Assembly (NCBI RefSeq): GCF_900090325.1
Contig: NZ_FMHW01000002.1
Coordinates: 1,054,001-1,118,000 of the forward strand
Direction of reading: 5' to 3'
Source of the DNA: Micromonospora pallida
GTDB lineage: Bacteria > Actinomycetota > Actinomycetes > Mycobacteriales > Micromonosporaceae
Length of the DNA stretch: 64,000 nt
In this document: piece by piece, positions 5,563 to 49,147 of the stretch
Layout of the letters: each line of letters starts with the position of its first letter
How positions within the stretch are numbered: position 1 is the first letter of the stretch
Translations under genes and position numbers: made by a program
The notes under the pieces: generated by a model
The model's input: the letters and a program-made list of their open reading frames with translations, nothing else
The model's database searches: none
Told to the model about the DNA's origin: nothing

Positions 5563-6918
5563 TCAGACAGAACGATCCTCACGTCCCTGGGACGCGCCCA
5601 CCATCGTTTCCTTGGGAGTTGTTAGCCGACGGCCGAGGGTGATCGACTGAGGCAGAATGTTCGGCCCGGTGAGCACGGCCTCCTGGCCACCGTCCTGGGA
5701 GAGCGCGACCCGCCATTCCATCCGGGCAAGCAGGTCCGCATCGAGCTGATCGGGTTGGCCGGAGACCACGCACAGTCCCCACTGCTCGGCGCCGGTACCT
5801 TTGGGCCACGGAATACGACACGTCCCAGCTTGCCCCACGTCTATGACGAACCAGTGTGGTGTGCCGGTCGCCGCGCGGTGTGCGAGCAGCTGCTGCCACA
5901 TTGCCTGCGAATATGCTTCGCGGGCGGTAGTGCCGAGACCGGACAGATCGAGGAGGACGCTGCGGTCGATGCCGTGGAGGCGCGGCAACTCCGCCGGGTC
6001 GGGAAGCTGGGCGCCGCCCAGTACGGTGAGCCCGGGCAGCGTGTCCAGGGGAACCTGCCGTCCTTCGGGGGCGAGCATCAGGACGCTGTAGCGTTGCGCG
6101 ACCAGTTGTTCGACGACCAGACGGGTGAGGTAGGACCTGGCGGACCCGCCGGCTCCGGTGATGAGCAGGTTGGTCTGGGCCGCGGGGAGCCGGACGGGCC
6201 GGTCGGCGGCGTCCGTACCGAGCACGACGTGTCGACGGTCGCTGTGCAGCCGTTGTCGGCCGCTGAGAACGTCACTGGCAAGCAGTTCGGCCACACCGGC
6301 GCCGTTCGGGGTGGTCAGCACCAGGTCGGCGCAGCGGCGGAGCGAATCGACCGCGTTGGCCACGGCCACCCCGAGTTCGGCGGCGGCGAACATGGCGTGG
6401 TCGTTCTCGGCGTCTCCGAACGCCATGCTGTTGTGCGGGGAGATGTCGAGTTCGGCGAGCGCGGCACACAGACCGGTGCCCTTGCTGATGCCGGCCGGCA
6501 ACAGCATCAGCTCGTCACGATTGCGCACCACCTGAACGTCCAAGCCGAGGAACCCGACGGCCTCCACCACCGCGTCGTAGGCATCCGCGCCTGCGCCCAG
6601 CAGCACCTCCCCGCGGCCGACAGCGACGCCGGCGGAGGACAGTCGCTCCAGCAGCGCGGGTTCGACCGGGTCCACGAGATGCCGGACCGCGTCGTCAGTG
6701 CGCAACACGCAGCCGTTCTCCGCCACGACCAGATCGAAACGGTTGGCCAAGCCCGGAAAGTCCGCCTCCAGGTGAGCGAGGTTGCGCCCGGTGACCAGCA
6801 GCATCCGTACGCCGTCGTCCCGCAACGCCGCGATGCGGTCGAGCACGGCCGCCGACGGCGAACCGCCGGTGGTCAGCGTGCCGTCGAGGTCGAAGGCGAC
6901 CGCACGATACCAGCGCAC
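5563..6918 (-). CDS. HAD-IIB-type phosphatase fused to a degenerate P-loop ATPase-like domain
   Basis: About 451 residues. The N-terminal 230 residues are a Cof-type HAD hydrolase: AFDLDGTLT holds the nucleophile and acid/base Asp, VTGRN is motif II, KGTGLCAALAEL carries the motif III Lys and FGDAENDHAMF is motif IV. The remainder resembles a HerA/VirB4-like P-loop domain: NLLITGAGGSARS is Walker-A-like but lacks the Lys, and WFVIDVG is Walker-B-like. GTG at 6918 is preferred because AGGAG lies about 10 bases upstream; an in-frame ATG at 6936 and a longer reading to 7017 are weaker. It is transcribed away from the acyl-CoA dehydrogenase pair, is the left-most plausible cluster gene, and may dephosphorylate a sugar phosphate. 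The fusion is uncommon; whether the second domain binds ATP is unknown. Confidence 0.75.
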   Translation of the reverse strand: MRWYRAVAFDLDGTLTTGGSPSAAVLDRIAALRDDGVRMLLVTGRNLAHLEADFPGLANRFDLVVAENGCVLRTDDAVRHLVDPVEPALLERLSSAGVAVGRGEVLLGAGADAYDAVVEAVGFLGLDVQVVRNRDELMLLPAGISKGTGLCAALAELDISPHNSMAFGDAENDHAMFAAAELGVAVANAVDSLRRCADLVLTTPNGAGVAELLASDVLSGRQRLHSDRRHVVLGTDAADRPVRLPAAQTNLLITGAGGSARSYLTRLVVEQLVAQRYSVLMLAPEGRQVPLDTLPGLTVLGGAQLPDPAELPRLHGIDRSVLLDLSGLGTTAREAYSQAMWQQLLAHRAATGTPHWFVIDVGQAGTCRIPWPKGTGAEQWGLCVVSGQPDQLDADLLARMEWRVALSQDGGQEAVLTGPNILPQSITLGRRLTTPKETMVGASQGREDRSV

Positions 6919-7226
6919 CTTGGTCGCTCTCCTCATTGGTCCGACGGCCCCGCAATCCCGACAGAACCTACCACTGGCAGGGTGCGTTCGCGGCCACGTC
7001 GGCAGCAGGCTCCACAAGGGAACCGGCCGTACTCCGCGAACTGCGGGGTGCCGCTTTGCCGTCGCCGGACTCAGCAGCTAACGTCTGTTGTCCGGTGAGT
7101 CCATCGATGCCTGGTCGGGACCGAGGGCGATCCGACACCGCGCGGATGCGACCGGTTGACGACCGAGGGCGAGCCCTGCCAGAGCGCGCGATCAGGCGAG
7201 AACGGCGTCGACGGGGAGTCATCACC
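6919..7226. other. Divergent intergenic region (308 bases)
   Basis: Lies between the leftward HAD gene and the rightward dehydrogenase pair. It contains a promoter-like sequence for the rightward genes (7056-7084) and the GGGGAG ribosome site of the first dehydrogenase. I see no convincing coding sequence or strong repeat. Confidence 0.6.
7056..7084 (+). promoter_or_regulatory. Candidate promoter for the acyl-CoA dehydrogenase pair
   Basis: TTGCCG (7056-7061), a 17-base spacer and TAACGT (7079-7084) match the layout of a primary-sigma promoter. Transcription would start near 7091, giving a leader of about 135 bases. By-eye match only. Confidence 0.4.
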
Positions 7227-9035
7227 ATGACTGTCGCAACGGACGAGCTGAGCGTTGCCGTCGAATCCGCCGCCGTGCCGGACGGTACCGTCGGGAATTT
7301 TCCCGTCCTGCTCGACGGGGAGCTGGACCGTCGGCTCGGGGACCCGAACGACCCGACGCGCGTGTTCTCGCACGTCCGGTGCCTGGAGCTGGACGAGCGG
7401 GAAGAATTCCCGGGCGAGATCTGCGCCGCGCTCGACGCGGTCGGGCTGACTCGGTTCTATGTCCCGTCCGCACATGGCGGCTCGTTGCGCAGCTATGAAG
7501 AGCTTGCGGCGCTGTTGCGCGTGGTGGCGCGTCGAGACCTGACGGTGGCGATCGCACATGGCAAGACCTTCCTCGGTACCGCGCCCTCGTGGGTGGCCGC
7601 GACGCCGGAGCAGGCCACTCGGCTGGCGAACGACGTGCTGTCCGGGGTACGCGTCGCGCTGGCTCTGACCGAACCCGACCATGGCAGCGATCTGCTTGCC
7701 ACGGAGGTCCGTGCGGTGCCCGACGCCGGTGGCTATCGGCTCACGGGGACGAAGTGGCTGATCAACAACGCGACACGCGGGCACCAGGCATGTGTGTTGG
7801 CCCGCACCGATCCGGCCGGTGGCCCGCGCGGGATGAGCCTGTTGCTGGTCGACAAGCGGACCCTGCCGCAGGGCAGCTACCGGTGCCTGCCGAAGGAACC
7901 GACCCACGGAATCCGAGCGGCTGATATCAGTGGCCTCGACTTCCGGGATGCGTTCGTGCCCGCCGACGCGCTGCTCGGCCGCCCGGGTGGCGGTCTGGAG
8001 ATCATCCTCAAGGCCCTGCAGTTGACCCGCACCGGATGCACCGCTCTGTCGCTCGGCGCAGCCGACCAGGCGCTCGAGCTCGCGACCCGGTTCGCGGTCG
8101 ACCGCGAGCTTTACGGCGGACGGCTCGTCGAGCTGCCGAACATCCGTCATACGCTGGGACGGGCATACGCCCAGCTGTTCATCGCCGAGGCGGTCAGTGT
8201 CGTGGCCAACCGGAGCATCCACGTGCTGCCCGGCGAGATGAGCGTGGTGTCCGCGGTGGCGAAGTCACTCGTCCCGACGCTGGTGGACGAAGTCATCGAC
8301 GAGCTCGGGGAACTGCTGGGGGCACGCTCCTTCCTGCGAGGGGTGTACGCCGGCGGGCGGTATCAGAAGGTGGAGCGGGATCACCGCATCGTGGCGATCT
8401 TCGACGGCAGCACGGTGGTGAACCGGAACGCGCTGATCAATCAGTTCGACCGGCTGGCTCGTGCCTACCGTCGCGGCCACAGCGACCGCGCCGGGCTGGC
8501 CACGGCGCTGCGGCTCGGCAGCCCGGTCCCACCGTTGGAACCCCGCCGACTCGGCGTGATCTCGCGTACCGGTTGCAGCCTGCTGCAGTCACTGCCGGAT
8601 GCGGTGCGGCACGTCCGCGCGCTGGTGGCGGAGCACGAGATACCGGCGCGCCTGGCAGCCGCGGTGGACGAGCTCTCCGTCCAGGTCGATGAGCTGCACA
8701 TGCACCTCGCGCAGGTGGTCCCGCACCACGGCGGTCACGGGCCGGAAGCGTTCGACCTTGCCCGACGCTACGAGCTGTGCTTGGCCGGTGCCGCCTGTGT
8801 ATCGCTCTGGTTGGCCAACCACCGGCGAGTTCCGATCGGCTCGGCGTGCGTGCCGTGGGCCGGTGGCGAGTGGTTGGCGACCTGTCTGGAGTTTCTCCTC
8901 GGACGATTGGACCCGGCGCGGCCACCGCACCAGGACATGTTCCTGACGTTGTTCGAGGCCGTCGCCCGGTCTGCCGCCCGTGGACCGGTCTCCATCCTGC
9001 CGCGCTATCTCACGAAGGAGTCCGATGGCCGGTGA
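7227..9035 (+). CDS. Acyl-CoA dehydrogenase family protein, long form, catalytic partner (ACAD1)
   Basis: 602 residues, against about 380-400 for a standard acyl-CoA dehydrogenase. The flavoprotein core spans about residues 60-410: LTEPDHGSD (near 147) and GTKWLINNA form the FAD/substrate region, and the C-terminal core has QKVERDH followed by IVAIFDGST, keeping a Glu at the usual catalytic-base region. Residues 410-602 are an extra helical domain with no motif I recognise. ATG 7227 is chosen because GGGGAG lies 8 bases before it; the frame is open further upstream but reads as non-coding. Its stop overlaps the start of ACAD2 by 11 bases, so the two are coupled and probably form a heteromer. 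Likely role: alpha,beta-desaturation or other oxidation of an acyl thioester, perhaps on the nearby carrier protein. Substrate unknown. Confidence 0.85.
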   Translation: MTVATDELSVAVESAAVPDGTVGNFPVLLDGELDRRLGDPNDPTRVFSHVRCLELDEREEFPGEICAALDAVGLTRFYVPSAHGGSLRSYEELAALLRVVARRDLTVAIAHGKTFLGTAPSWVAATPEQATRLANDVLSGVRVALALTEPDHGSDLLATEVRAVPDAGGYRLTGTKWLINNATRGHQACVLARTDPAGGPRGMSLLLVDKRTLPQGSYRCLPKEPTHGIRAADISGLDFRDAFVPADALLGRPGGGLEIILKALQLTRTGCTALSLGAADQALELATRFAVDRELYGGRLVELPNIRHTLGRAYAQLFIAEAVSVVANRSIHVLPGEMSVVSAVAKSLVPTLVDEVIDELGELLGARSFLRGVYAGGRYQKVERDHRIVAIFDGSTVVNRNALINQFDRLARAYRRGHSDRAGLATALRLGSPVPPLEPRRLGVISRTGCSLLQSLPDAVRHVRALVAEHEIPARLAAAVDELSVQVDELHMHLAQVVPHHGGHGPEAFDLARRYELCLAGAACVSLWLANHRRVPIGSACVPWAGGEWLATCLEFLLGRLDPARPPHQDMFLTLFEAVARSAARGPVSILPRYLTKESDGR

Positions 9036-10746
9036 CGTGAGGTCGGCGCAGCGGGTAGCGGCGCTGGAGCAGCAGCTGGGCGATCCCTGGGACACGGCGA
9101 ACCCGACCGGCTTCGCGGCCATCCTCGCCGCGGACGAACGGGAGGAGGTGTTCCAGGCCGGTGAGCAGGCGCTCGACCGCTGCGGCACGGCTGCGGAGCT
9201 GGTACCGGTCGCATCGGGCGGCCGCCTTGCCGGGATGGACCAGCTGATCCGCGTCACGCGCCCGGTGTGCCGCCGGGATCTGGCGTTGTGGCTCGGGTAC
9301 GGGGGAGGGCCGTTCATCGCGACGCAGAACGTCTGGGCGGCCGGGGACACCGACCAGCGTCGGACGGTTGCGGACCTCGTACTCGGCGGCGGGCGCATCG
9401 CCGCGGCCTACCACGAGCTGGACCACGGCAGCGACTTCCTGCGCGCTGACCTGCACGCCCGGCAGGTCGACTCAGGGCTGGTGCTGACCGGCCGCAAGGA
9501 GATCATCACGAATGCCGCGCGCGCCCGGTACATGGTCGTGTTCGCGCGTACCGGCGCGATGCTCAGCCCGTGGAGCCACTCCCAGCTCCTGGTCGACATG
9601 GCCGCCGTGCCGCCGGACCGGGTACGCCACCTGGACCGGTTCCCGGCCGCCGGCATGCGGGGCGTCCAGCTCGGCGGCGTCGAATTTCTGGACTGCCCGG
9701 TCCCCTCCGGTAGCTTGCTGGGCGCGATGGGTCGCGGTGTGTCCACTGCCCTGCGCTCGTTCCAGGTCACCCGGGTGATGTTGCCCGCCATGGCTACGGC
9801 GAGTCTGGATACGGGCCTGCGGGTCGCGCAGCGCTTGGGTGTACGACGACGCCTCGACGGTCGACTTGTCGCCGACCTGCCGGCCTGGCGGCAGTCACTC
9901 GTCGACGCGTTCGTCGACCTGCTCATCTGCGATGCCTTCACCACCGTGGCCGCCCGCGGGCTGCACCTGCTGCCTGGCGAGGCCAGCCTGCATTCGGCGG
10001 CGGTGAAATACCTGGTCCCCGGCTATCTGGTCGGTGCGATGCGCCGCCTGTCCGTCCTGCTCGGCGCCTCGTTCTACCTGCGCACCGGCCCGTACGCCAT
10101 CTTTCAGAAACACCTGCGGGACCTGCCGCCGGCGCTGTTCGGTCACGCCCCGCGGGCGGCGTGCCTGGCGGCGCTGCTGCCGAAGTTGCCGACGCTGGCC
10201 CGTCGTGCCTGGCCGTCGGGTGAACCCGCCCCGGGCACCCTCTACGAGCTGGGGACGGACGTGCCCGAGCTGCCGTACCACCAACTGAGCGTCTCCGGCA
10301 ACGGTCGCGACAGCTTGAGCGCTTCGTTGGCCGCGGTGTGTGCGGCGCTCGCCGGCGCCGGTGGGGAGCACCAGGAGGTGGCTGCGCTGGCCGCTGCCTT
10401 CCTTGCCGAGCTGCGTGACCTCACCCCGCTCTGCGCTGGCCTGGCGGCCGAGGACCTCACCCCGAACGCGCGTCCGGCCGCCTTTGACCTGGCGGCCCGG
10501 TACGCCACCGTGCTGGCGGCCTCGGCCTGTCTCAACGTCTGGTGGGCCGCCGGGGGCGCCGGTTTTGCGGGCGACGTGCACTGGATCGCCGCCGCGCTCC
10601 GCCGGCTCCGCCGAGGCGTGGCGCAGCCGGCCGAGCCCGCCAGCGAACCGTCGCGGTACACGTCCGACCCGCTGTGGCGTGAGCTGACGTCGAGGTTCGA
10701 CGGGGGGCAGTCGTTCGACCTCGCGGCCGGACCGGTGGCTGGTTGA
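9025..10746 (+). CDS. Acyl-CoA dehydrogenase-like protein lacking the catalytic Glu (ACAD2)
   Basis: 573 residues, the same architecture as its upstream neighbour (core plus C-terminal helical extension). HELDHGSDF (near residue 129) and LTGRKEIITNAAR match the FAD-binding face. Where ACAD1 reads QKVERDH and then FDGST, this protein reads QKHLRDLPP and then FGHAP, so the catalytic base and the FAD-contacting segment after it look lost. ATG 9025 follows AAGGAG by 4 bases and overlaps the ACAD1 stop. Known alpha2beta2 dehydrogenases (for example the mycobacterial ChsE pair) have one active and one inactive subunit, so a structural or substrate-binding subunit is the simplest reading. Confidence 0.8.
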   Translation: MAGDVRSAQRVAALEQQLGDPWDTANPTGFAAILAADEREEVFQAGEQALDRCGTAAELVPVASGGRLAGMDQLIRVTRPVCRRDLALWLGYGGGPFIATQNVWAAGDTDQRRTVADLVLGGGRIAAAYHELDHGSDFLRADLHARQVDSGLVLTGRKEIITNAARARYMVVFARTGAMLSPWSHSQLLVDMAAVPPDRVRHLDRFPAAGMRGVQLGGVEFLDCPVPSGSLLGAMGRGVSTALRSFQVTRVMLPAMATASLDTGLRVAQRLGVRRRLDGRLVADLPAWRQSLVDAFVDLLICDAFTTVAARGLHLLPGEASLHSAAVKYLVPGYLVGAMRRLSVLLGASFYLRTGPYAIFQKHLRDLPPALFGHAPRAACLAALLPKLPTLARRAWPSGEPAPGTLYELGTDVPELPYHQLSVSGNGRDSLSASLAAVCAALAGAGGEHQEVAALAAAFLAELRDLTPLCAGLAAEDLTPNARPAAFDLAARYATVLAASACLNVWWAAGGAGFAGDVHWIAAALRRLRRGVAQPAEPASEPSRYTSDPLWRELTSRFDGGQSFDLAAGPVAG

Positions 10747-10765
10747 CGCCGGCGGGTCCGGCGTC
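10745..10765. terminator. Bidirectional hairpin between convergent genes
   Basis: GACGCCGG (10745-10752), a 5-base loop and CCGGCGTC (10758-10765) form a perfect 8-bp stem. It starts at the ACAD2 stop codon and lies 15 bases from the stop of the opposing diiron gene. Confidence 0.65.
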
Positions 10766-10779
10766 CCTGCCCACGACCG

Positions 10780-11739
10780 TCACCGTCGTACCCCGGCGCT
10801 CGGCCGCAGCAGGGACAGTTCCTCGAGATGCGTGCGTACGTCGGGGGTCAGCAGGCCGAGCTTCTGGATGATGGAGACGATCTTGGCAAATAGCGCCCGC
10901 CGAAAGTCCACCATGGTGGGGTCGCTGCGCGCGTACCGGATTCCTGCCGCGACGTCGAGATCCATCCGCTCCCAGATCTCCTCCAACTGGAACCGGCGGG
11001 ACATCAGCAGCGACGCCTCTTTGAGGAAGTCGGTGCGCTCAGCCCGCTCGGCCGAGGTCAACTCGTCATAGCTGCCCTGCAACGCCAGGACGCCGAAGGC
11101 GACGTGGCGCGCCTCGTCGCGGGCGACCAGTTCGGTGATCTGTTGAATGACCGGATCGAACGCGGATGCCTGGCCGAACCGGAACACGGCCAGTGCCAGG
11201 CCCTCGACGATGACCTGCATCCCGAGGTAGACGATGTCCCAGCGGTTGTCGGCGACGACCTGAAAGAGCAACGACCGCAGGGCTGGATTGATCGGGTACG
11301 AGCGGCCGAGCCGCTGCAGATACATCGAGAACGCTTCGACGTGCCGAGCCTCGTCGGCGACCTGGCTGGCCGCGTAGAGCTTGTCGTCGATGTTCGGAAC
11401 GATCTGCACCAGCCGCGATGTCGCCAGTAACGCACCCTGTTCCCCGTGCAGGAACTGACTGGTCATCCAGCAGTGGTATTCCCAGCGGTAGTCGTTCCAC
11501 AGCTCCGGGGGAACCGGGCAGTCAGGGGACCTCAGTTGTGCCGCGCTGGCCGCCGTCTCGGGCAGTGGCGCCCCGTACCGAAGCTCGGCTGACCAGTCGA
11601 TGTCGGTGAGCGCGTTCCACTGCGCCGCCTTGCCCTTCTCGTACAGCGCTCGGAGCTTGTCCGCCTTGGCTTCGTAGTCCCAGGTGAATCGGGTCGTCGT
11701 CGTCGACTCGAACACCAACGACCCGGAGCGGTCCTCCAC
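10780..11739 (-). CDS. Ferritin-like diiron oxygenase/desaturase (R2-like fold)
   Basis: 319 residues with a complete set of six diiron ligands in the ribonucleotide-reductase-R2/acyl-ACP-desaturase pattern: Glu100 (FLHGEQG), Glu130 and His133 (DEARHVEAF), Glu179 (VEGLAL), Glu209 and His212 (DEARHVAFG). Proteins with this pattern include N-oxygenases and acyl-carrier-protein hydroxylases or desaturases. The start is GTG at 11739, with GAAGGGA about 6 bases upstream. It lies 27 bases after the carrier-protein gene on the same strand, with the fatty-acyl ligase further upstream (now separated by a transposon), so acyl-ACP is the likely substrate. It could instead act on an amine; the sequence does not decide between C- and N-oxidation. 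Confidence 0.82.
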   Translation of the reverse strand: MEDRSGSLVFESTTTTRFTWDYEAKADKLRALYEKGKAAQWNALTDIDWSAELRYGAPLPETAASAAQLRSPDCPVPPELWNDYRWEYHCWMTSQFLHGEQGALLATSRLVQIVPNIDDKLYAASQVADEARHVEAFSMYLQRLGRSYPINPALRSLLFQVVADNRWDIVYLGMQVIVEGLALAVFRFGQASAFDPVIQQITELVARDEARHVAFGVLALQGSYDELTSAERAERTDFLKEASLLMSRRFQLEEIWERMDLDVAAGIRYARSDPTMVDFRRALFAKIVSIIQKLGLLTPDVRTHLEELSLLRPSAGVRR

Positions 11740-11766
11740 ATGCGTCCCTTCGCCCGTGCGGCTGCG

Positions 11767-12105
11767 TCAGTACTGGTCGATCACGCTCGCCACGTCGTCT
11801 GGCCCGGGGATGGTGCCGAGACCGGCGGACACCTTGTCGAGCAGGAAGTCGCGCAATTCCGCTGGCGTGCCCATGGGTGGCGCCTCGGCGAGGACCGACG
11901 GGTCCAACTCGAACAGGTCTTCCAGGATCGAGGCCAGCTCCACCATGCGTAGGGAGTTGTAGTGCAACTCGCCCGCCAGGCTCTGATGTTCGCCGGCCAC
12001 GTCGACAGGTTCGGGAGCGACCCGCCCGACGAGCCGCCGGACGATGTCGTCCGTCCGAGCCAGGTCGCTGGTGTCTTCGGTGGTTGCTCGTGACGTGCTG
12101 TCCAT
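11767..12105 (-). CDS. Acyl carrier protein 1
   Basis: 112 residues. LHYNSLRMVELASILEDLF places the phosphopantetheine Ser at residue 51 in an N-S-L context, followed by the usual acidic helix. An N-terminal tail of about 20 residues is polar and probably disordered. ATG 12105 has GGAGG about 12 bases upstream. It lies between the fatty-acyl-AMP ligase gene (upstream on the minus strand, beyond the TnpB insertion) and the diiron oxygenase gene, so it is the expected acceptor of the ligase product. Slightly longer than a fatty-acid-synthase ACP. Confidence 0.88.
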   Translation of the reverse strand: MDSTSRATTEDTSDLARTDDIVRRLVGRVAPEPVDVAGEHQSLAGELHYNSLRMVELASILEDLFELDPSVLAEAPPMGTPAELRDFLLDKVSAGLGTIPGPDDVASVIDQY

Positions 12106-12184
12106 GTTCGGTCAGTGCCTCCGTTCGGGCTGCGCGGACCCTGCGAGCCGTCGCATCGTCATCAACAGATTCCTTCCGTGGATA

Positions 12185-12204
12185 CTCCGGCCTTCAGGCC
12201 GGAG
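12185..12204. repeat. Left-end subterminal hairpin of the TnpB element
   Basis: CTCCGGCCT (12185-12193) pairs with AGGCCGGAG (12196-12204) around a 2-base loop. Shape and flanking GAGGAA resemble the right-end hairpin, as in IS200/IS605 elements, whose ends are recognised as hairpins rather than terminal inverted repeats. Confidence 0.65.
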
Positions 12205-12311
12205 AGGAAACGGAACTTCTGCGAAGCAGGACAGGGCCATCCGATCCGCTGCCTGGGCGAATCGGCGTCTGCCCGCGTGTCACTCCGAGCGTCACCGCTC
12301 GGCTTACTAGC

Positions 12312-13529: not shown

Positions 13530-13547
13530 GCGGGGAAGGATGTCAAG
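13400..13547 (+). ncRNA. Predicted omega-RNA (reRNA) region at the TnpB right end
   Basis: TnpB nucleases use a guide RNA read from the 3' end of tnpB and the element's right end. Here the terminal hairpin (13518-13535) and GGATGTCAA tail match such right ends. The 5' boundary is a guess; the guide would be the flanking sequence after about 13547, which lies in the ligase gene. Confidence 0.4.
13518..13535. repeat. Right-end hairpin of the TnpB element
   Basis: CCCCGCCT (13518-13525) and AGGCGGGG (13528-13535) form an 8-bp stem with a 2-base loop that overlaps the tnpB stop codon. Same type as the left-end hairpin. Confidence 0.7.
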
Positions 13548-15420: not shown

Positions 15421-15452
15421 CGCGGGAAACCGAGCCGAAGGAGCTTCGCATC

Positions 15453-38379: not shown

Positions 38380-38401
38380 TTGTGGTCTCCTTGACAGACG
38401 A

Positions 38402-39208: not shown

Positions 39209-39209
39209 G

Positions 39210-42198: not shown

Positions 42199-42234
42199 CG
42201 ACCGTCTCTCTTCGTACGCGGTGGGCAGTGGTCC

Positions 42235-43302
42235 TCAAGAAACGAAACCGAGGAAGGCCGCTCTCGCCTCCCCCTCGGGCAGGCCGCGCGGCGGACTCTT
42301 GAACAGCAGGGCGCAGGCGTCGTTCACGGCGCCGGACAGGGCGCGGTCGGTGGCCAGCCGGGCGGCCCGGACGGCGTTCGCGATGACGCCGGCGGCGTTC
42401 GGGCTGTCCTCTACCGTCAGTTTGACGTCGATCTTCACCTCGGAGCCGAGGACGGAGGTCGCCGTGATGTTGAGGAAGCACACCTTCGTGTCGGCCAGGT
42501 GGCGGATGAAGCCGGTCGGTCCGGCCGCGATGCTGGCATCGTCCATCCCGGCGGCCCGCAGCGCGTTGGCCTTCGAGGTGAACTTGGACGCCGAGCGCGT
42601 GGGGTCGGCCAGGTTGAGGAAGTCGGTGTTCCCGCCGACGTTGAGCTGATAGGTGCTCGACGGCACCAGGCCGCGGCTGAGCAGCAACTCCAGCAGGGCG
42701 GTGTGCAGTGTCGTGGCACCCAGGTGACTGCGCAGATCGTCGCCGAGAATCACCACGCCGGCATCGGCGAATCGGCGGCACAGGGCCTCGTCGCGGGCCA
42801 GTTCCTCGGGTGTGGCGTTCACGACGGCTATGCCGGCGGCCAGCGCGGCGTCGGCGAACATCCGGATAGCCCGGGAAGCGCCGGTGGGCAGCATGATGAC
42901 GAGGACGTCCGCCTCGAGTTCGATCAGCGCCTTCGTGACGTCCTCCGGTCGAGCGTCCTGCGCGGCGTCGGCGGGCTGAACGACGCCACCCAGCGGCCCG
43001 GCGAGGCCGTCGAGCACCGGCGCGGGCAGGACCGGTGAATCACCGTCGGCGCCGAGCGGGACGAAGGCGGTCGCGGAGACGACGGGGGTGGCGAAGGCGT
43101 CGGACAGGGATCGGCCCACCTTGGTCGCGTCCACGTCGAACGCCGCAACGACCCGGACGTCGGACAGGAGGTACCCACCCACCGAACGGCACATGAGGCC
43201 CGGAGGTGTGGCGGCGGGGTCCGCCTGCGCCTGAGCGACGAACTGGCTGAAGCTGGATGCGCAGTTGCCTGCGCCGGCCAGTACCACACGGATCGGTTTC
43301 AC
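42235..43302 (-). CDS. myo-Inositol-1-phosphate synthase family cyclase
   Basis: 355 residues from GTG 43302, fixed by AAAGGAG 7 bases upstream; the frame is open to 43497 but is low-complexity there. VVLAGAGNCASSFSQFV is the NAD+ motif, YQLNVGGNTDFLNLADP and ASKFTSKANALRA hold the family's Gly-rich and catalytic-Lys segments, and DVKLTVEDSPNAAGVI is the C-terminal signature. The family turns a hexose 6-phosphate into a cyclitol phosphate; homologues in aristeromycin-type clusters make five-membered rings. Actinobacteria also carry a housekeeping copy for mycothiol, but the position in this cluster argues for a dedicated one. Confidence 0.9.
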   Translation of the reverse strand: MKPIRVVLAGAGNCASSFSQFVAQAQADPAATPPGLMCRSVGGYLLSDVRVVAAFDVDATKVGRSLSDAFATPVVSATAFVPLGADGDSPVLPAPVLDGLAGPLGGVVQPADAAQDARPEDVTKALIELEADVLVIMLPTGASRAIRMFADAALAAGIAVVNATPEELARDEALCRRFADAGVVILGDDLRSHLGATTLHTALLELLLSRGLVPSSTYQLNVGGNTDFLNLADPTRSASKFTSKANALRAAGMDDASIAAGPTGFIRHLADTKVCFLNITATSVLGSEVKIDVKLTVEDSPNAAGVIANAVRAARLATDRALSGAVNDACALLFKSPPRGLPEGEARAAFLGFVS

Positions 43303-43493
43303 AGGGGTCTCCTTTCCCGGCTGTCCACGGGTGTGCGCCGGAGAGGCCAGAGCTGATGTGTGTGAACGACCGGTATCCGCCCTCCGGCCGCGTTCGCCGG
43401 CTGCACGATGTGGTCCTCCAGGAGGGGCGGGAGGCGGCGGTCGCAGACCACTGCCCCACGTCGTTGGGCCGGACGCGACTTCCCGCTCGGGCG

Positions 43494-44528
43494 TCACGGG
43501 CCGACGAGCTGGCTGCTCAAAAATCCGGCGAGCCGATCGACCTGCCGCCGGACGTCATGGAAGTCGTACCGGAATCGGTATGTCGGCAGGGCCGTGAGGG
43601 CATCCCGGGTCGGCTCGGCACTGCCCGGCTCGGGTTCGTGCCCGAAGATGTTGAGGTGCTTGTTGGGCTGGGCCAGAAGGCGCCGCTCCAGCAGCGTCCG
43701 GCGCTCCGACGGGTGCACCGGGGCGAGGGTGGCCTCCGCCGGATCGTCGGCGAGGCTCAGGTGCACGACAACGTCGACCCGGGCGTGCTGGCCGATCTTG
43801 GTGTCCAGCAGGTCCGCGTACTCCCAGGGGTAGAGCAGTGCCGTGCCGTTCGGTTCGGCGCCGGACTCACGCAGACGCGGCAACGTCGCGTTGGCGGGAT
43901 GCGACAGCCGGGACAGGACAGCTTGCGCGCGGTCGTGCCCGAACAGCAGGTCCAGGGTGTCGAGACGTACCGAAACCGACCGCGGCCAGCCGAAGCCGGT
44001 GACGCCCTCGTCGCCGTCGCCGGCGAGCATGCTGACGTCGTCGTTGCAGACCATGACGCCGGATCCGTCGAGGACGCCGGCCATGATGAAGGACGTCTTG
44101 CCGGCCCGGCTCCCGCCGACCAGCGCGACACCGATGCCGTTCAGCTCCACCAGTCCCGCGTGCAGGAACGACGTGCCCTGGCGGGCGGCCGCCGAACGGT
44201 GGATCGCCCGGGTCGCCCGCAGCAGCGACTGAGCCGTCCAGGCATCGCCGCTCGGAGCCAGATGGAAGAGAAACCTCCGGGAGTGGTCGACGGCGTACTC
44301 CACGGTTTCCTCGCCGTGGGCGGTGACCAGCTCGGGCACCGACTCGCCGGTGGGTTCGGTGTCGGCAAACACCTCCCACGCGCCGGTATCCGGCCTGCCC
44401 GCTTCCAGGGTGAACCACGGTGCTGCCAACCGGCTGATCTGGTCGGCCACAGCTGGCGTGCATGTGAGACCGGTGTGGGCGAACCTTGACCGAATGGCGT
44501 GTCGGCGCAGTTTGTTACCGGAAACCAT
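43494..44528 (-). CDS. HPr-kinase-like P-loop protein 2
   Basis: 344 residues. GVALVGGSRAGKTSFIMAG is Walker A, preceded by TSFLHAGLVELNG as in HprK-like kinases; MVCNDDVSMLAG resembles the acidic loop after it. Only the core resembles HPr-kinase-like protein 1; the N-terminal domains differ. ATG 44528 is chosen at MVSGNKLRRH; GTG 44540 is an alternative. The AGATCTATC element lies about 120 bases upstream and is shared with the nucleotidyltransferase operon. It may phosphorylate a second position of the product or of a carrier-bound intermediate. Confidence 0.7.
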   Translation of the reverse strand: MVSGNKLRRHAIRSRFAHTGLTCTPAVADQISRLAAPWFTLEAGRPDTGAWEVFADTEPTGESVPELVTAHGEETVEYAVDHSRRFLFHLAPSGDAWTAQSLLRATRAIHRSAAARQGTSFLHAGLVELNGIGVALVGGSRAGKTSFIMAGVLDGSGVMVCNDDVSMLAGDGDEGVTGFGWPRSVSVRLDTLDLLFGHDRAQAVLSRLSHPANATLPRLRESGAEPNGTALLYPWEYADLLDTKIGQHARVDVVVHLSLADDPAEATLAPVHPSERRTLLERRLLAQPNKHLNIFGHEPEPGSAEPTRDALTALPTYRFRYDFHDVRRQVDRLAGFLSSQLVGP

Positions 44529-44649
44529 GGTGGTGCCCACCCCATGTCTCTGGTCATGCCCCGCGCGGGGGCGCAGCTGCGCGGCGGGTCCCCTCCGGTG
44601 GAGAAGGCGCCGCGGCCGGTCGACTGGATCAGCTTCCGGCGAGGATGCT

Positions 44650-44658
44650 AGATCTATC
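44650..44658. promoter_or_regulatory. AGATCTATC element upstream of HPr-kinase-like gene 2
   Basis: Exact 9-base match to 35506-35514. It overlaps ATCTATCGATATG (44652-44664), whose complement begins CATATCGATAG and partly matches the AT-rich elements at 25490 and 49224. It could be an operator; unproven. Confidence 0.3.
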
Positions 44659-44698
44659 GATATGTTGCAAGGGCTGCGCATCGCCGAAACGGGAGAGT

Positions 44699-45394
44699 TC
44701 AGTTCACAACGAGTGGTCCTGATGTGTCCCAGCCCAGCTCCTGTCGCCCGCGGAAAAACCTGCCATTGGAGCGCGCGGCAGGCAGTTTCAGGAGCCGGAC
44801 CAGGTCTTCGGCGGCCAGGCGGGGATCGTTGGGCGCGGTCCGGGTGCCCATGTCGGTGCGGATCCATCCGGGACAGAACGCGAACGCAGACAGGTCCGCG
44901 TTTCGCCGCTCGAAGTGACGCGCGAGTCCGAGCACAAGTGCGTTGAGGGCCAGCTTGGACGCTCGGTAGGCGAACGAGGCGCCGTCGGCGTCCTGGAGGC
45001 GGCCCATCCCGGACGAGACACACAGGACCCGCCCCGAGCCGCGGGCAAGCATCGGCGGCGCGTAACGCTGAACCAACTGCGTCGCCCCGAACAGGTTCAC
45101 CGCGAATGTCTCGCGCAGGTCCGCGAGGGACAGCGCGAACAGGTCACCGTATCCGCCGCGCGGATCGTCGAGGTACACGCCGGCATTGTTGACCAGCACG
45201 TCGACGGCCTCGCCGGCGAACAGCTCGCACGAGACCGGTTCCCGGAGGTCCACGACCCGGTAGTCGTCGAGTGGGACATGCTGCGGCGCGACCGACAGCC
45301 CGACACCCAGCACCCGGTAGCCAGCCGCCTTCAGCTCATGGCAGATGCGGATACCCAGACCACGAGACACCCCGGTGACCAGAGCAGTCGGCAT
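44699..45394 (-). CDS. Short-chain dehydrogenase/reductase 2
   Basis: 231 residues. ALVTGVSRGLGIRICHEL is the cofactor motif, DVLVNNAGVY the family NNAG, and LCVSSGMGRLQDADGASFAYRASK holds the Ser and Tyr-x-x-x-Lys. There is no clear ribosome site before ATG 45394. It diverges from the ABC transporter genes with a 100-base gap. It may oxidise or reduce a sugar or cyclitol intermediate. Confidence 0.82.
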   Translation of the reverse strand: MPTALVTGVSRGLGIRICHELKAAGYRVLGVGLSVAPQHVPLDDYRVVDLREPVSCELFAGEAVDVLVNNAGVYLDDPRGGYGDLFALSLADLRETFAVNLFGATQLVQRYAPPMLARGSGRVLCVSSGMGRLQDADGASFAYRASKLALNALVLGLARHFERRNADLSAFAFCPGWIRTDMGTRTAPNDPRLAAEDLVRLLKLPAARSNGRFFRGRQELGWDTSGPLVVN

Positions 45395-45494
45395 CAGGCA
45401 AGCGTAGTCGCCGTACCGTGCCTGTCCGCATGCCCGGACGCGCTTCGGTCGGGTCGCACCACGGGCATCGATCCATGGCTAGGATCGGTCGGCG

Positions 45495-47348
45495 ATGAGA
45501 CCTCCCTCCGGCGACGCCAGCCGGCCGATGACGACGCGATCCACTCTGCGCGACCGGATGCTGCTGATCGGCGAGTTGCGCCACAGCGGTCCGCTCGCCG
45601 TGATCGTGCTGATGTTCACGCAGGTGACGATCGCCCTCGTCCCCGCGCTGACCGCGCTGACGATCGAGAACCTGGTGAACCGGGTCCTGCTCGGGTCGTC
45701 GTTGACCGTCGCGCTGATCCTGCTCGGCGCGGTCCTCCTGGCCGGACGGTTGGCGCAGACGGTCTCCGCGCCGGCGACCTTCCTGGTCTCGCAGCGCATC
45801 GACATGGCCCGCCGTGCCGCGCTGACGTCACTGGCGGTCTCCGGAGCGCACCTCGGGCCGATGGAACAGCCCCGGACTCGCGAGCTGATCCGGGTGGCCC
45901 GCGCGGATCCGGAGTTCTGGGCCGAACGTCCACCGGGGACGGGCGCGACGGCCCAGCTGGATCTCATCATGCGCTGGATCGGTGTGCTCGCCGCCACCGC
46001 GGTGCTGGCCAGCTTCGCCTGGTGGCTCGCCCCCCTCGTGATCATCCCGGCCGTCGCCAGCCGTTGGCTGTGGCGGCGTCAGTTCATGGAACACATCGAG
46101 ATCGAGCGGCGTGGCGTGTCGGCCGGGATGGAGGCGGACCACTGGCGGCGCCTGGCGGTGGACGCGACCGACGGCAAGGAGAGCCGCACCTTTGGGCTCC
46201 AGCACTGGGCGCTCGCTCGCTGGCATGAGCGGCTGATGACCATGTTGTCGCCGAAGTGGCACGCCGGTATCCGTAGCGTCCTGGACCAGTGGCAGGTAGC
46301 GGTGCTGGTCGGGCCGCCGCTGACCGTGGCTTTCACACTGGTCGTGTGGCACGCCGGGCAGAACGGCGACGGCGTGGCCGAGGCGGCGGCGGTACTCGGC
46401 GCCGGCTGGGCGGTCCTCAACCTGCTCGGCTTCATCGACGCGCTGGAGATCGAGGGGGCCATCCCCGGCTGCCGCGCGTACGCCACGTTGCGCGCCGAGA
46501 CCGCCGACCCGTACGTGCCTGTCGCCGCGGTATCCCAGAGCCTGGATGCGCCGCGCGTACGCTTCGAGCAGGTCTCGTTCGCCTACTCCGCCACGGGTCC
46601 GGCCGTGCTCGACGGCCTCGACCTGGAGATCGCCCCCGGCGAGCTGCTCGCCGTCGTCGGCCTCAACGGCGCCGGCAAATCCACGCTGATCAAACTGCTA
46701 GCTGGGCTCTACACACCCAGCTCCGGCCGTATCACCGTGGACGGCGTCGACCTGGCGGCTGTCGAACCGCCGCTGTGGCGCAGCCGGATTTCCATCGTCT
46801 TCCAGGACTTTGTCTGCTACCACCTGTCCTGTCTCGACAACGTCGCCCTCGGGTACGCGGCCGCGCCGGTGGACCGCAAGCGTATCGAGCAGGCGGCAGC
46901 CGACTCCGGACTGGACCAGCTGGTCGCCCGCCTGCCCCTCGGATGGGACACCCCGCTGGCCCGCACCCGCGTCGGCGGCGTGGACCTCTCCGGCGGCCAA
47001 TGGCAGAAGGTCGTGTTGACCCGGGCGATGTACGCACTGCGCTGTGGAGCCCGGCTGCTGGTACTCGACGAGCCGACGGCCCATCTGGACGTCAAGTCGG
47101 AGTTCGAGGTCTTCCACGAACTCGCCCGGCACAAGCGGCACGCCGGCGTAGTGCTGATCTCACACCGGCTGTCCACGGTCCGCCTCGCCGACCGCATTGT
47201 GCTGCTCGATGGCGGCCGGATCGTGGAGTCCGGTTCCCATGACGAACTGATGGCCGAGGACGGCCGGTACGCCAAGCTCTTCATCACCCAGGCGGAACGC
47301 TTCAACCAGGGTTTCGACGACAGGTTCGACGAGGAGGACACGCCGTGA
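45495..47348 (+). CDS. ABC exporter half-transporter 1 (membrane and ATPase domains fused)
   Basis: 617 residues. About six membrane segments in the first 320 residues are followed by an ATPase domain: GLNGAGKSTLIKLLAG (Walker A), VDLSGGQWQKVVLTRA (signature), LLVLDEPTAHLD (Walker B) and ISHRLSTV (H-loop). Leaderless translation from ATG 45495 is possible: TAGGAT (45480-45485) lies 9 bases upstream and no ribosome site is seen. Met12 at 45528 is an alternative. Fused half-transporters of this type export peptides, lipids or hydrophobic antibiotics. Paired with the next gene as a likely heterodimer for product export. Confidence 0.9.
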   Translation: MRPPSGDASRPMTTRSTLRDRMLLIGELRHSGPLAVIVLMFTQVTIALVPALTALTIENLVNRVLLGSSLTVALILLGAVLLAGRLAQTVSAPATFLVSQRIDMARRAALTSLAVSGAHLGPMEQPRTRELIRVARADPEFWAERPPGTGATAQLDLIMRWIGVLAATAVLASFAWWLAPLVIIPAVASRWLWRRQFMEHIEIERRGVSAGMEADHWRRLAVDATDGKESRTFGLQHWALARWHERLMTMLSPKWHAGIRSVLDQWQVAVLVGPPLTVAFTLVVWHAGQNGDGVAEAAAVLGAGWAVLNLLGFIDALEIEGAIPGCRAYATLRAETADPYVPVAAVSQSLDAPRVRFEQVSFAYSATGPAVLDGLDLEIAPGELLAVVGLNGAGKSTLIKLLAGLYTPSSGRITVDGVDLAAVEPPLWRSRISIVFQDFVCYHLSCLDNVALGYAAAPVDRKRIEQAAADSGLDQLVARLPLGWDTPLARTRVGGVDLSGGQWQKVVLTRAMYALRCGARLLVLDEPTAHLDVKSEFEVFHELARHKRHAGVVLISHRLSTVRLADRIVLLDGGRIVESGSHDELMAEDGRYAKLFITQAERFNQGFDDRFDEEDTP

Positions 47349-49147
47349 CCCGCTACCTGCGGCTGTGGACCGAGATACTGGGTGTCTCGTGGCGCCACGC
47401 CCGTGGGCTGACCACCACGGTGTTCGGTATCGAGGTCGGCCTGGTCGCCGGGAACATCGGCATCGCACTGGCCCTGCGAGCCGCCGTGGACGGACTTGTA
47501 GCCGGCGATGTCCCCGCCGCCGTCACCGCCGCGGTGGTCGCGGCGGTGGCCTCGACGACGGTGTTGTTGCTCAATCGGCTGCACGGACTGATCGGGCTGT
47601 TCCTGATCGTTGAACGGGTCGGCATGGTTCTGGAACAACGTCTGCTCGAGGACATCGCCGCGCTCGAACGCATCGAGCATCTCGAGCGCAGCGACTACCT
47701 CGACCGGCTGACTGTGCTGCGCTACGCGCCGAAGCGGATCGTGGGCGGGATGTGGAACGCGGTCCGCGCCTGCTTCACCATGCTGCAGCTGGCTCTTACG
47801 CTGCTGTTGCTCGGCTCAGTCAGCCCCTGGCTGCTGGTGCTCCTCGTGCTCGCCGCGGCCCCGTTGTGGTGCGACCGCGCGGGCCGGAAGATCGAGAGCC
47901 ACGCCGAGATCAGCACCGCTGAAGCGTTCCGGCTCCAGCGGCACCTGTTCGATGTCGCCACCGACGCCGCTGCGGGCAAGGAGATCCGTACCAGCCAGGC
48001 CGGGCACCGGGTCGCACAGTTGCAGGCGGCGGCGTTTCACGAGGCCACCGTCGGCCGGTACAGTGCCCGTGTCCGCGCCGCCTGGCTGCGCGCTGCCGGC
48101 TGGACCGTCTTCGTGGCCGGCTTCATTGCCTGCCTCGGTATCGTGGCGCGCCAAGCCGCGGCGGGCACCGCCACCCCGGGCGACGTCGTCCTCGTCGTGA
48201 CACTCACGATCAACCTCCAGCAGACCGTGCAGACCGCCGTCAGCCAGCTCGCCACCACGATGAACGCCGGTCTTTTCCTGGACCCGTACCTGTGGCTCAG
48301 GGCATATCTGCAGCAGGAGCGGTCCGCGCGCCGCGGCGACCTCCCGCCGCCCGAGCGCCTGACCACCGGTATCCGCCTCGACCGGGTCGGCTTCTCGTAT
48401 CCGGGCGCGGCTGAGCCGGTGCTCGCCGACGTCGACGTCCTGCTGCCCGCCGGCAGTGTGGTCGCGCTCGTCGGAGAGTTCGGGTCGGGCAAGTCCACGC
48501 TGGTCAAGCTACTCAGCCGCTTCTACGAACCCAGCCTCGGCCGCATCACGATCGACGGCACCGACCTCCGCGACATCCAAACCGAGCAGTGGCGCAGGCG
48601 TACCAGCGCCGCCTACCAGGACTTCGGTCGGTATCCCCAGATGACCTTCGCAGAGGCGGTCGGACTGGGCGACATCAGGCGTCTCGACGATGTGGATGCG
48701 GTCGGGCGTGCCATCGACGCGGCCGACGCCCAGGGGATCGTCAGGCGTCTGCCCGCAGGCGCGGCGACCCGCCTGTCACCGCTGTACGGCGGTGTCGACC
48801 TGTCGGAGGGACAGTGGCAGAAGACCGCACTAGCTCGAGCCAGCATGCGGACGGACCCGTTGCTCTTCATGCTCGACGAGCCGACCGCGTCCCTCGACGC
48901 CCCGAGCGAGCACGCCATCTTCCAACGCTACATGCAGCGGGCCCGGCAGCTGGCCGCCCGCAACGGCGCCATCACCCTGGTGGTCTCCCACCGGCTGTCC
49001 ACGGTCGCCGGAGCCGATCTGGTGCTGGTGCTGCATCGGGGCAGGCTGGTGGAGCAGGGCACCCACGACCAGCTGATGGCGGCCGGCGGGCGGTACAGCG
49101 AACTGTTCGGTCTGCAGGCCAGGGCGTACCGCCTGCGTCGGCCGTGA
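47345..49147 (+). CDS. ABC exporter half-transporter 2
   Basis: 600 residues. GTG 47345 overlaps the first half-transporter by 4 bases (GTGA) with GAGGAGG upstream. Membrane domain first, then GEFGSGKSTLVKLLSRF (Walker A), VDLSEGQWQKTALARA (signature, LSEGQ instead of LSGGQ), LFMLDEPTASLD (Walker B) and VSHRLSTV. In heterodimeric exporters one of the two ATP sites is often weaker; the signature change fits that pattern. Probably the last gene of the cluster. Confidence 0.9.
   Translation: MTRYLRLWTEILGVSWRHARGLTTTVFGIEVGLVAGNIGIALALRAAVDGLVAGDVPAAVTAAVVAAVASTTVLLLNRLHGLIGLFLIVERVGMVLEQRLLEDIAALERIEHLERSDYLDRLTVLRYAPKRIVGGMWNAVRACFTMLQLALTLLLLGSVSPWLLVLLVLAAAPLWCDRAGRKIESHAEISTAEAFRLQRHLFDVATDAAAGKEIRTSQAGHRVAQLQAAAFHEATVGRYSARVRAAWLRAAGWTVFVAGFIACLGIVARQAAAGTATPGDVVLVVTLTINLQQTVQTAVSQLATTMNAGLFLDPYLWLRAYLQQERSARRGDLPPPERLTTGIRLDRVGFSYPGAAEPVLADVDVLLPAGSVVALVGEFGSGKSTLVKLLSRFYEPSLGRITIDGTDLRDIQTEQWRRRTSAAYQDFGRYPQMTFAEAVGLGDIRRLDDVDAVGRAIDAADAQGIVRRLPAGAATRLSPLYGGVDLSEGQWQKTALARASMRTDPLLFMLDEPTASLDAPSEHAIFQRYMQRARQLAARNGAITLVVSHRLSTVAGADLVLVLHRGRLVEQGTHDQLMAAGGRYSELFGLQARAYRLRRP

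What the first reader, a model, noticed from the sequence alone, without database searches (positions are those of the whole stretch)
5563..49147. Uncharacterised cluster of about 38 genes with no known scaffold-building enzyme
Seen: two adenylating ligases, two carrier proteins, three acyl-CoA dehydrogenases, a diiron oxygenase, a fold-III decarboxylase, a cyclitol synthase, a split transketolase, a GT20 enzyme, at least eight kinase/phosphatase/nucleotidyltransferase-type genes and a dimeric exporter. There is no PKS, terpene synthase or working NRPS module. Inference: an acyl/aminoacyl amide joined to a phosphorylated sugar or cyclitol. I know of no described cluster with this set.
Basis: partly seen in the sequence, partly recalled or inferred. 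Interest (0 to 1): 0.88.

Follow-up and report, generated by a model that had tools for sequence, protein, structure and literature searches.

The report
Conserved cyclitol-nucleoside antibiotic gene cluster
This is a cluster of about 37 genes whose widely shared core looks built to join a ring-shaped sugar alcohol to adenosine using a repurposed SAM-making enzyme, which would be a new way of making an antibiotic scaffold if confirmed in the laboratory.

Summary
The cluster is real and fills a sharp 43.7-kb island (about 5,521-49,239). The cluster is layered: (1) MIPS, MAT, an SDR and an NDK-fold protein occur in 13 of 13 compared loci (11 actinomycete genomes, one Bacillota and one Pseudomonadota plasmid); (2) AsnB, an ANT-like nucleotidyltransferase and kinases join them in 9 actinomycete loci; (3) an aminoacyl-ACP module is shared with Crossiella and S. 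spinosus; (4) the left third (FAAL, AurF, GT20, transketolase, SIS) has no match above 36% identity there. The MAT keeps its catalytic His, ribose Asps and adenine-stacking Tyr, but the Asn that binds methionine's carboxylate is Trp in 120 of 120 listed sequences and stays Asn in 25 of 25 other Streptomyces-genus MATs. I infer an adenosyltransferase with a non-methionine nucleophile, probably the cyclitol, giving a 5'-O-adenosyl-cyclitol like adenomycin, which has that ether. In this window it would be further aminoacylated, glycosylated and lipidated. The chemistry is untested; confidence about 0.42.

The parts
5521..49239 (.). whole island / biosynthetic gene cluster
   Evidence: Alignment to same-genus genomes ends at 5518-5521 (5 of 5 fetched); conserved block resumes at 49240 (2 of 2 fetched); GC3 0.872 vs 0.939 in flank genes
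5563..6918 (-). HAD-IIB phosphatase with C-terminal extension
   Evidence: PF08282 E 3.6e-27
7227..9035 (+). acyl-CoA dehydrogenase-like flavoenzyme 1
   Evidence: PF00441, PF02770, PF02771
9025..10746 (+). acyl-CoA dehydrogenase-like flavoenzyme 2
   Evidence: PF02770 E 5.3e-10
10780..11739 (-). AurF-type diiron oxygenase
   Evidence: PF11583 E 6.9e-14
11767..12105 (-). carrier protein 1
   Evidence: PF00550 E 0.003, below cut-off; NSL serine motif
12312..13529 (+). IS200/IS605 TnpB-type transposase (insertion, not pathway)
   Evidence: PF01385 E 6e-31, PF07282, PF12323
13543..15225 (-). fatty acyl-AMP ligase-like
   Evidence: PF00501 E 2.5e-45; best NCBIfam NF006624 fatty acyl-AMP ligase, 297 bits, below its cut-off 600
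15519..16424 (+). transglutaminase-core protein
   Evidence: PF01841 E 6.8e-7
16508..18460 (+). free-standing condensation-domain protein
   Evidence: PF00668 E 2.6e-24; HHxxxD motif
18464..19105 (-). SIS isomerase, GmhA-like
   Evidence: PF13580; TIGR00441 E 3.9e-16, below its cut-off
19102..19887 (-). cupin
   Evidence: PF07883 E 4.5e-8
19884..20837 (-). transketolase C half
   Evidence: PF02779 E 7.5e-36, PF02780
20834..21721 (-). transketolase N half
   Evidence: PF00456 E 1.2e-39
21766..23253 (-). GT20 glycosyl/pseudoglycosyl transferase
   Evidence: PF00982 E 4e-66; OtsA-type 5lqd 167 bits, VldE 3vdm 154 bits
23244..24203 (-). HIBDH/6PGDH-type reductase
   Evidence: PF03446 E 2.7e-31
24232..25344 (-). 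APH-type kinase 1
   Evidence: PF01636 E 2e-10
25832..26623 (+). HAD-IIB phosphatase 2
   Evidence: PF08282; 64% id in Crossiella locus
26637..27719 (+). NTP_transf_5 nucleotidyltransferase
   Evidence: PF14907 E 3.8e-38; 73% id in two other loci
27795..28061 (-). carrier protein 2
   Evidence: PF00550 E 1.8e-7
28117..29280 (-). acyl-CoA dehydrogenase/flavin monooxygenase-like 3
   Evidence: PF02771, PF08028; best PDB 3pfd (69 bits) and DszC-type 5xb8 (67 bits)
29277..30512 (-). fold-III aminoacyl-ACP decarboxylase, BtrK-like
   Evidence: PF02784 E 1.1e-34; best PDB match BtrK 2j66/7ru7, 223 bits, next 157
30505..31926 (-). aminoacyl-ACP ligase
   Evidence: PF00501; best PDB match 3wvn, 427 bits (VinN by recall)
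31923..32552 (-). histidine-phosphatase-fold protein
   Evidence: PF00300 E 1.8e-30; reads A-H-P where R-H-G is usual (usual motif recalled)
32580..34316 (-). AsnB-type glutamine amidotransferase
   Evidence: TIGR01536 291 bits over cut-off 267; Met-Cys start and SGGLDS present
34372..35475 (-). ANT/KNTase-fold nucleotidyltransferase
   Evidence: 54 homologues besides itself; AF2 pLDDT 91.5; Foldseek best ANT 6un8 E 1.3e-4, TM 0.38/0.51
35695..36267 (+). P-loop small-molecule kinase (AK-like by name only)
   Evidence: PF13238 E 5.6e-4, below cut-off; P-loop conserved
36264..37073 (+). APH-type kinase 2
   Evidence: PF01636 E 6.5e-12; HGDLHGRN and DWD
37219..38379 (-). HprK-like kinase 1
   Evidence: PF07475 E 0.003, below cut-off; Walker A in 9 of 9
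38402..39208 (-). PHP (HisJ-like) phosphatase
   Evidence: PF02811 E 9.8e-22; NF005596 211 bits over cut-off 202
39210..39959 (-). SDR 1
   Evidence: PF13561 E 8.3e-49; match in 13 of 13 loci, 35-83%
39995..41014 (-). NDK-fold phosphotransferase
41008..42198 (-). W-type MAT-family adenosyltransferase
   Evidence: PF01941 E 5.5e-93; Asn61 to Trp in 11/11 and 120/120, other key residues kept
42235..43302 (-). MIPS-family cyclitol-phosphate synthase
   Evidence: PF01658; 233 bits to Mtb Ino1 1gr0, 190 to five-membered-cyclitol synthase 6k96
43494..44450 (-). HprK-like kinase 2
   Evidence: Walker A and NDD motifs; PF07475 only E 0.069; in 12 of 13 loci
44699..45394 (-). SDR 2
   Evidence: PF00106 E 9e-27
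45495..47348 (+). ABC exporter half 1
   Evidence: PF00005; 71% id beside the core in Crossiella
47345..49147 (+). ABC exporter half 2
   Evidence: PF00005; 75% id beside the core in Crossiella

Best explanation
A specialised-metabolite gene cluster whose core makes an adenosine-cyclitol ether (5'-O-adenosyl-cyclitol) nucleoside. MIPS cyclises glucose 6-phosphate to an inositol phosphate, and SDR enzymes re-set or oxidise a ring carbon. The MAT-family enzyme then uses the triphosphate of ATP as leaving group, as in SAM synthesis, but with a cyclitol oxygen (or nitrogen) instead of methionine sulphur as nucleophile. The P-loop kinase and the NDK-fold protein would next phosphorylate this AMP-like mimic. 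HprK/APH kinases, PHP/HAD phosphatases and the ANT-like transferase set protection and timing. In this window the scaffold is decorated by (a) a decarboxylated amino acid made on carrier protein 2 (ligase, BtrK-like decarboxylase, flavoenzyme) and transferred by the condensation domain, (b) a fatty acyl group (FAAL, carrier protein 1, two flavoenzymes, diiron oxygenase), (c) a sugar made by transketolase/SIS/cupin/kinase/phosphatase enzymes and attached by GT20, and (d) an amide by AsnB. An ABC pair exports it. Shown: gene content, boundaries, conservation layers, folds, active-site substitutions. Inferred: every chemical step.
For: MIPS, MAT, SDR1 and NDK-like matches occur in 13 of 13 loci compared, two of them on Bacillota and Pseudomonadota plasmids (there SDR1 is 35-39% and NDK-like 23-29%). 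In a search of 392 genomes of the genus of S. albireticuli (two of the finds already known), 5 hold a W-type MAT and 5 of 5 have MIPS within about 16 kb; MIPS was found by 0 of 25 N-type MATs in 4-kb loci and 0 of 7 in 20-kb loci. 37 of 119 MAT entries share an exact longest-contig length with a MIPS entry. Cluster MATs keep H30, H59, N158, D198, Y268, D280 (pfMAT numbering) but have Trp for Asn61 in 11 of 11, against Asn in 25 of 25 N-type MATs and 3 of 3 archaeal ones. Of 547 homologues the 120 listed (one is the window's own) all have Trp; 115 keep His59 and 5 have Asn there. Residue roles: PMC3853416 and PMC8727953 (passages). Adenomycin has adenosine C5' joined by an ether to C3 of an L-chiro-inositol derivative (PMC6540904, passages). 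No SAM-dependent methyltransferase family was hit among the island ORFs scanned. NDK fold and active-site residues kept. BtrK- and 3wvn-like aminoacyl module.
Against: No biochemistry. Trp57 could still allow methionine or an analogue, and His59, Asn158 and Asp280, which also touch methionine, are kept. Alignment of the flexible loop is ambiguous (searches place it differently). Seven Streptomyces-genus loci of the family carry a gene that in S. albireticuli hits methyltransferase models, so plain SAM supply is possible there. A role for NDK/AK is guessed. No adenomycin producer genome was identified, and the gulosamine of adenomycin (and serine, recalled) has no clear counterpart here. MIPS is 41% identical both to Mtb Ino1 and to the five-membered-cyclitol synthase, so the ring size is open. 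AsnB and the left third are not explained by the core model. SDRs are common proteins, so low-identity SDR matches in the plasmids may not be orthologues.
Confidence: 0.42

Rival explanations
1. The MAT is an ordinary though divergent SAM synthetase kept in the cluster to supply SAM or to resist a product that inhibits MAT; the product is an acyl-aminocyclitol without adenosine.
For: Catalytic His and ribose/adenine residues intact; the S. albireticuli relative carries a methyltransferase-family gene.
Against: Carboxylate-binding Asn replaced by Trp in 120 of 120 listed sequences while 25 of 25 N-type Streptomyces-genus MATs keep it; no SAM-dependent methyltransferase hit in the window's island; repeated pairing with MIPS in three phyla is not expected for a housekeeping spare.
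Confidence: 0.25
2. Carbocyclic nucleoside of the aristeromycin kind: MIPS makes a five-membered cyclitol, and kinases plus NDK and MAT build a carbocyclic ATP and SAM analogue.
For: AK-like, NDK-like and MAT are linked in 9 close loci; the five-membered-cyclitol-phosphate synthase 6k96 (Ari2 by recall) is also a MIPS-family enzyme.
Against: Window MIPS scores 233 bits to Mtb Ino1 and 190 to 6k96 and does not group with 6k96 in a tree whose deep support is poor; no phosphoribosyltransferase or adenylosuccinate enzyme was hit among the island ORFs scanned.
Confidence: 0.12
3. One reading: an acyl/aminoacyl amide of a phosphorylated sugar or cyclitol, with the MAT peripheral. (Overlaps with the first rival.)
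For: Ligases, carriers, C domain, GT20 and kinases all present.
Against: The aminoacyl module has close matches in only 2 of 13 loci that hold the core and part of it in a third; the sugar and fatty-acyl modules have none above 36%, so they decorate rather than define it.
Confidence: 0.2
4. Two neighbouring clusters: a core (about 25.8-49.1 kb) and an unrelated lipid/sugar cluster (5.5-25.4 kb). (Not exclusive of the best explanation.)
For: The left third matched the 13 compared loci only at 25-36% and patchily: HAD, ACAD1, FAAL, C domain, transketolase halves, reductase; a transposase lies in it.
Against: One island with one composition and sharp ends; split transketolases and a condensation domain also sit beside the core in Crossiella and S. 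spinosus.
Confidence: 0.2

Closest known systems
Adenomycin (C19-97), Streptomyces griseoflavus
   Same: Natural adenosine 5'-O-ether to an inositol (PMC6540904, passages; producer and 1980 structure reference from PMC11452475, passages); matches the product inferred for the core
   Different: No biosynthesis paper among the 20 of 21 papers listed; L-gulosamine, and serine and sulphate (recalled), have no obvious genes here
Archaeal-type methionine adenosyltransferase (PF01941)
   Same: Family, catalytic His, ribose and adenine residues
   Different: Asn61 to Trp in the 120 listed sequences; different flexible loop; MIPS as neighbour
Five-membered-cyclitol-phosphate synthase 6k96 (Ari2 of aristeromycin, recalled) and myo-inositol-phosphate synthase
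   Same: MIPS family; Ari2 starts a cyclitol nucleoside pathway (recalled)
   Different: Window MIPS does not group with 6k96; other nucleoside-assembly genes not seen
Butirosin BtrI/BtrJ/BtrK and vicenistatin VinN/VinO aminoacyl-ACP decarboxylation (pathway roles recalled)
   Same: Ligase, ACP and fold-III decarboxylase; best PDB matches 2j66 and 3wvn
   Different: Extra acyl-CoA-dehydrogenase-like enzyme; sits in a cyclitol cluster
Validamycin VldE / OtsA GT20
   Same: GT20 family, 154-167 bits
   Different: Listed outside matches in 396 same-phylum genomes reach 44% identity at most
Thuringiensin (thu) cluster
   Same: Adenosine joined to glucose and phosphorylated (PMC4147579, passages)
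   Different: No MIPS or MAT among the 11 thu genes named there

Membership tests
Functional SAM synthetase (archaeal-type MAT) | catalytic His, two ribose Asp, adenine-stacking Tyr | tested here: met
   11 of 11 cluster MATs; 120 of 120 listed sequences
Functional SAM synthetase (archaeal-type MAT) | Asn61 that binds the methionine carboxylate | tested here: not met
   Trp in 11 of 11 and 120 of 120; Asn in 25 of 25 N-type and 3 of 3 archaeal
Functional SAM synthetase (archaeal-type MAT) | flexible-loop Asp141/Leu142 | tested here: inconclusive
   Loop alignment ambiguous; no clear equivalents
Nucleoside diphosphate kinase | NDK fold | tested here: met
Nucleoside diphosphate kinase | active-site Lys, Tyr, Arg, Asn, His (roles recalled) | tested here: met
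   K42,Y89,R224,N243,H246 invariant in 6 sequences down to 20% identity
Nucleoside diphosphate kinase | recognised by a Pfam model | tested here: not met
   No Pfam family at E 0.1; PDB profile search only E 0.26
BtrK/VinO-type aminoacyl-ACP decarboxylation module | ligase + ACP + fold-III decarboxylase together | tested here: met
   27795-31926
Five-membered cyclitol synthase (Ari2 type) | closer to 6k96 than to myo-inositol-phosphate synthase | tested here: inconclusive
   190 vs 233 bits; 41% to each; poor deep support
Lasso peptide cluster | AsnB-like cyclase of the lasso family | tested here: not met
   NF033535 77 bits against cut-off 525; TIGR01536 over its cut-off
Adenomycin-type cyclitol nucleoside | product with 5'-O-adenosyl-inositol ether | not testable with these tools
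   No metabolite data; producer genome not identified
Any cluster in MIBiG | whole-cluster similarity | not testable with these tools
   MIBiG/BiG-SCAPE not available

The most novel reading that the evidence does not exclude
A MAT-fold enzyme subfamily marked by HHWF has been recruited, in at least three phyla, to alkylate a cyclitol with the adenosyl group of ATP. It founds a hidden class of cyclitol-nucleoside (ATP-mimic) pathways, of which this window is a lipidated, aminoacylated and glycosylated member.
Probability: 0.36. Interest if true: 0.9.

Novelty: new variant of a known kind. Interest (0 to 1): 0.72.

Why it matters
If right, it supplies the missing enzymology for 5'-O-adenosyl ethers such as adenomycin, whose structure dates from 1980 and for which no biosynthesis paper was listed. 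It gives a one-residue sequence flag (HHW for HHN) that would separate such pathways from true SAM synthetases; proteins with the flag are now named methionine adenosyltransferase in Streptomyces, Bacillus safensis, Enterococcus rivorum and Streptococcus mutans entries. It would widen MAT chemistry from S-alkylation to O- or N-alkylation with ATP. Even if the product differs, a MIPS-MAT-SDR-NDK cassette found from a Bacillota plasmid to Actinomycetota is a pathway that I could not match to a described one and that is easy to test.

Tried and rejected
Lasso peptide reading (AsnB + HprK-like + NTP_transf_5): rejected on cyclase scores. Carbocyclic nucleoside/SAM analogue: weakened by MIPS comparison. 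Trehazolin/validamycin reading from GT20: similar scores to OtsA (167 bits) and VldE (154); among 150 same-family genomes only the window's own had a GT20 match at E <= 1e-60; among 396 same-phylum genomes 167 match at E <= 1e-55, at most 44% identical apart from the window's own. Literature searches, judged from listings, showed no cluster with this gene set in an open-access library; one aristeromycin/coformycin cluster paper was not held. The first MIPS tree used a wrong Parageobacillus ORF and was redone. Two of ten NTase loci (L010, L011) lay on short contigs, hold only part of the core and were left out of the 13-locus table. Of six plasmid hits three were fetched (H1-H3) and two entered the table; H3 has an N-type MAT and no MIPS match; H4-H6 were not opened. 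Of 26 N-type MAT places, 25 had 4-kb loci; 7 wide loci were taken, one of them for the place without a 4-kb locus. MAT search in the order of Umezawaea: 1 of 298 genomes, Umezawaea itself. The transketolase halves match those of Crossiella and S. spinosus at only 29-36%, so orthology is doubtful. PDB searches for HprK1 and the NTase profile gave no convincing relative, and the AurF-like protein only weak ones.

Full report
OBSERVATION. By my count 37 genes fill 5,563-49,147. The edges are sharp: alignment with same-genus genomes stops at 5,518-5,521 in 5 of 5 fetched, with about 19.5 kb seen beyond, and a conserved block restarts at 49,240 in 2 of 2 fetched, with 2-4.4 kb seen on the cluster-facing side. 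Island genes have GC3 0.872 against 0.939 in flanking genes. The genome's other MIPS, 39% identical, lies 4.9 Mb away, so the cluster copy is a second one.

CONSERVATION LAYERS. The nucleotidyltransferase at 34,372-35,475 has 54 homologues besides itself, by name mostly Streptomyces, also Nocardia, Kutzneria, Umezawaea and Crossiella. Ten genome loci were found; eight were widened. In the resulting 13 loci MIPS, MAT, SDR1 and the NDK-like gene are in 13 of 13, HprK2 in 12 of 13. AsnB, NTase, AK-like, APH2 and HprK1 are in 9 of 9 close-type loci (the eight plus G251); HisPhos, SDR2 and PHP in 8 of 9 (not Umezawaea). The aminoacyl genes (ligase, decarboxylase, flavoenzyme 3, carrier 2, NTP_transf_5, HAD2) are in Crossiella and S. 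spinosus at 38-73%, and without the decarboxylase in G404 at 23-54%. The ABC pair is shared at 71-75% only with Crossiella. The left third has only patchy matches at 25-36%. Seven Streptomyces-genus loci (six plus G490) instead carry another conserved set of ten genes, seven of the ten called in S. pyxinae; in S. albireticuli these hit aminotransferase, methyltransferase, acyl-CoA dehydrogenase, START-type, HAD, ABC and epimerase models. G404 has a DegT aminotransferase next to the core, and the Parageobacillus plasmid a split DegT-like gene (by eye), pointing to aminocyclitols.

THE MAT. Two papers give residue roles in archaeal MATs (PMC3853416 and PMC8727953, passages seen). Mapped on the window enzyme, the catalytic His (26), both ribose Asp (203, 283), the adenine-stacking Tyr (271), His55 and Asn163 are kept. 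The Asn that holds the methionine carboxylate is Trp57 in 11 of 11 cluster enzymes, and Asn in 25 of 25 other archaeal-type MATs of that genus and 3 of 3 archaeal ones. The 120 listed of 547 homologues, down to 51% identity and including Bacillus, Enterococcus and Streptococcus entries, all have Trp; 115 of 120 keep His59. The W-type travels with MIPS: 5 of 5 in the 392-genome sample (two of the five already known), against 0 of 25 N-type in 4-kb loci and 0 of 7 in 20-kb loci, and 37 exact contig-length matches between two lists of 119. My inference is that the nucleotide half of the site is preserved and the methionine half is not.

DECORATION IN THIS WINDOW. The decarboxylase is closest to BtrK (2j66, 223 bits; next 157) and the ligase to 3wvn (427 bits; VinN by recall), so a decarboxylated aminoacyl-ACP is likely. 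FAAL, carrier 1, two flavoenzymes and AurF suggest a modified fatty acyl group; the free condensation domain could join either acyl group to an amine. The operon 18,464-25,344 (SIS/GmhA-like, cupin, two transketolase halves, GT20, reductase, APH) suggests a ketose-derived sugar, perhaps a heptose, moved by GT20. These assignments rest on family names.

WHAT WEAKENS IT. No product is known, MIPS ring size is open, loop alignment in the MAT is uncertain, and the AsnB step is unexplained. A SAM-supply role cannot be excluded, least of all in loci with a methyltransferase gene. MIBiG was not available, and the paper library lacks most subscription journals.

VERDICT. The family is best called a new variant of nucleoside/cyclitol clusters; the W-type MAT with MIPS is the part a specialist should test first.

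Noticed in passing
window 12312-13529 +: IS200/IS605 TnpB-type transposase between carrier protein 1 and the FAAL gene, opposite in strand.
   Followed up: partly
window 19-5448 +: Left flank is an S8 subtilase with malectin and carboxypeptidase-regulatory domains, full length at 81-83% in 7 of 30 other same-genus genomes and in two pieces in one more.
   Followed up: partly
window 49390-50724 +: PhoX phosphatase just outside the right edge; 92% identical in two same-genus genomes, with no cluster sequence in the 2-4.4 kb seen on that side.
   Followed up: partly
L107 (NZ_CP040554.1) 7142-20189: Compact core on a conjugative Parageobacillus plasmid, interrupted by IS256 and with a DegT-like gene lying in two reading frames.
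   Followed up: partly
L109 (NZ_CP108307.1) 6976-14117: Streptomyces plasmid cluster with an N-type MAT, glycosyltransferase, Gfo/Idh/MocA oxidoreductase, sugar-phosphate isomerase/epimerase, carbamoyltransferase and NUDIX: another possible adenosyl-sugar pathway.
   Followed up: no
L044-L068: A separate archaeal-type MAT (about 40% identical, HHN type) occurs in 25 of the 392 genomes searched; its neighbourhood was not annotated.
   Followed up: no
P0280, P0284: W-type MATs are listed for Streptococcus mutans and Enterococcus rivorum, named methionine adenosyltransferase.
   Followed up: no
window 29277-34316: Ligase, decarboxylase and amidotransferase each hit exosortase/EPS-associated models (TIGR03098, TIGR03099, TIGR03108), all below cut-off, suggesting a related trio in such loci.
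   Followed up: no
L082-L083: G490 carries two SDR1 copies and genes of two cluster types side by side, a hybrid.
   Followed up: no
window 31923-32552 -: Histidine-phosphatase-fold protein has A-H-P where R-H-G is usual (usual motif recalled); substrate or activity may differ.
   Followed up: no
G000 whole genome: 74 AMP-binding matches in a 7.76-Mb genome, many in very long frames, point to an unusually NRPS-rich strain.
   Followed up: no
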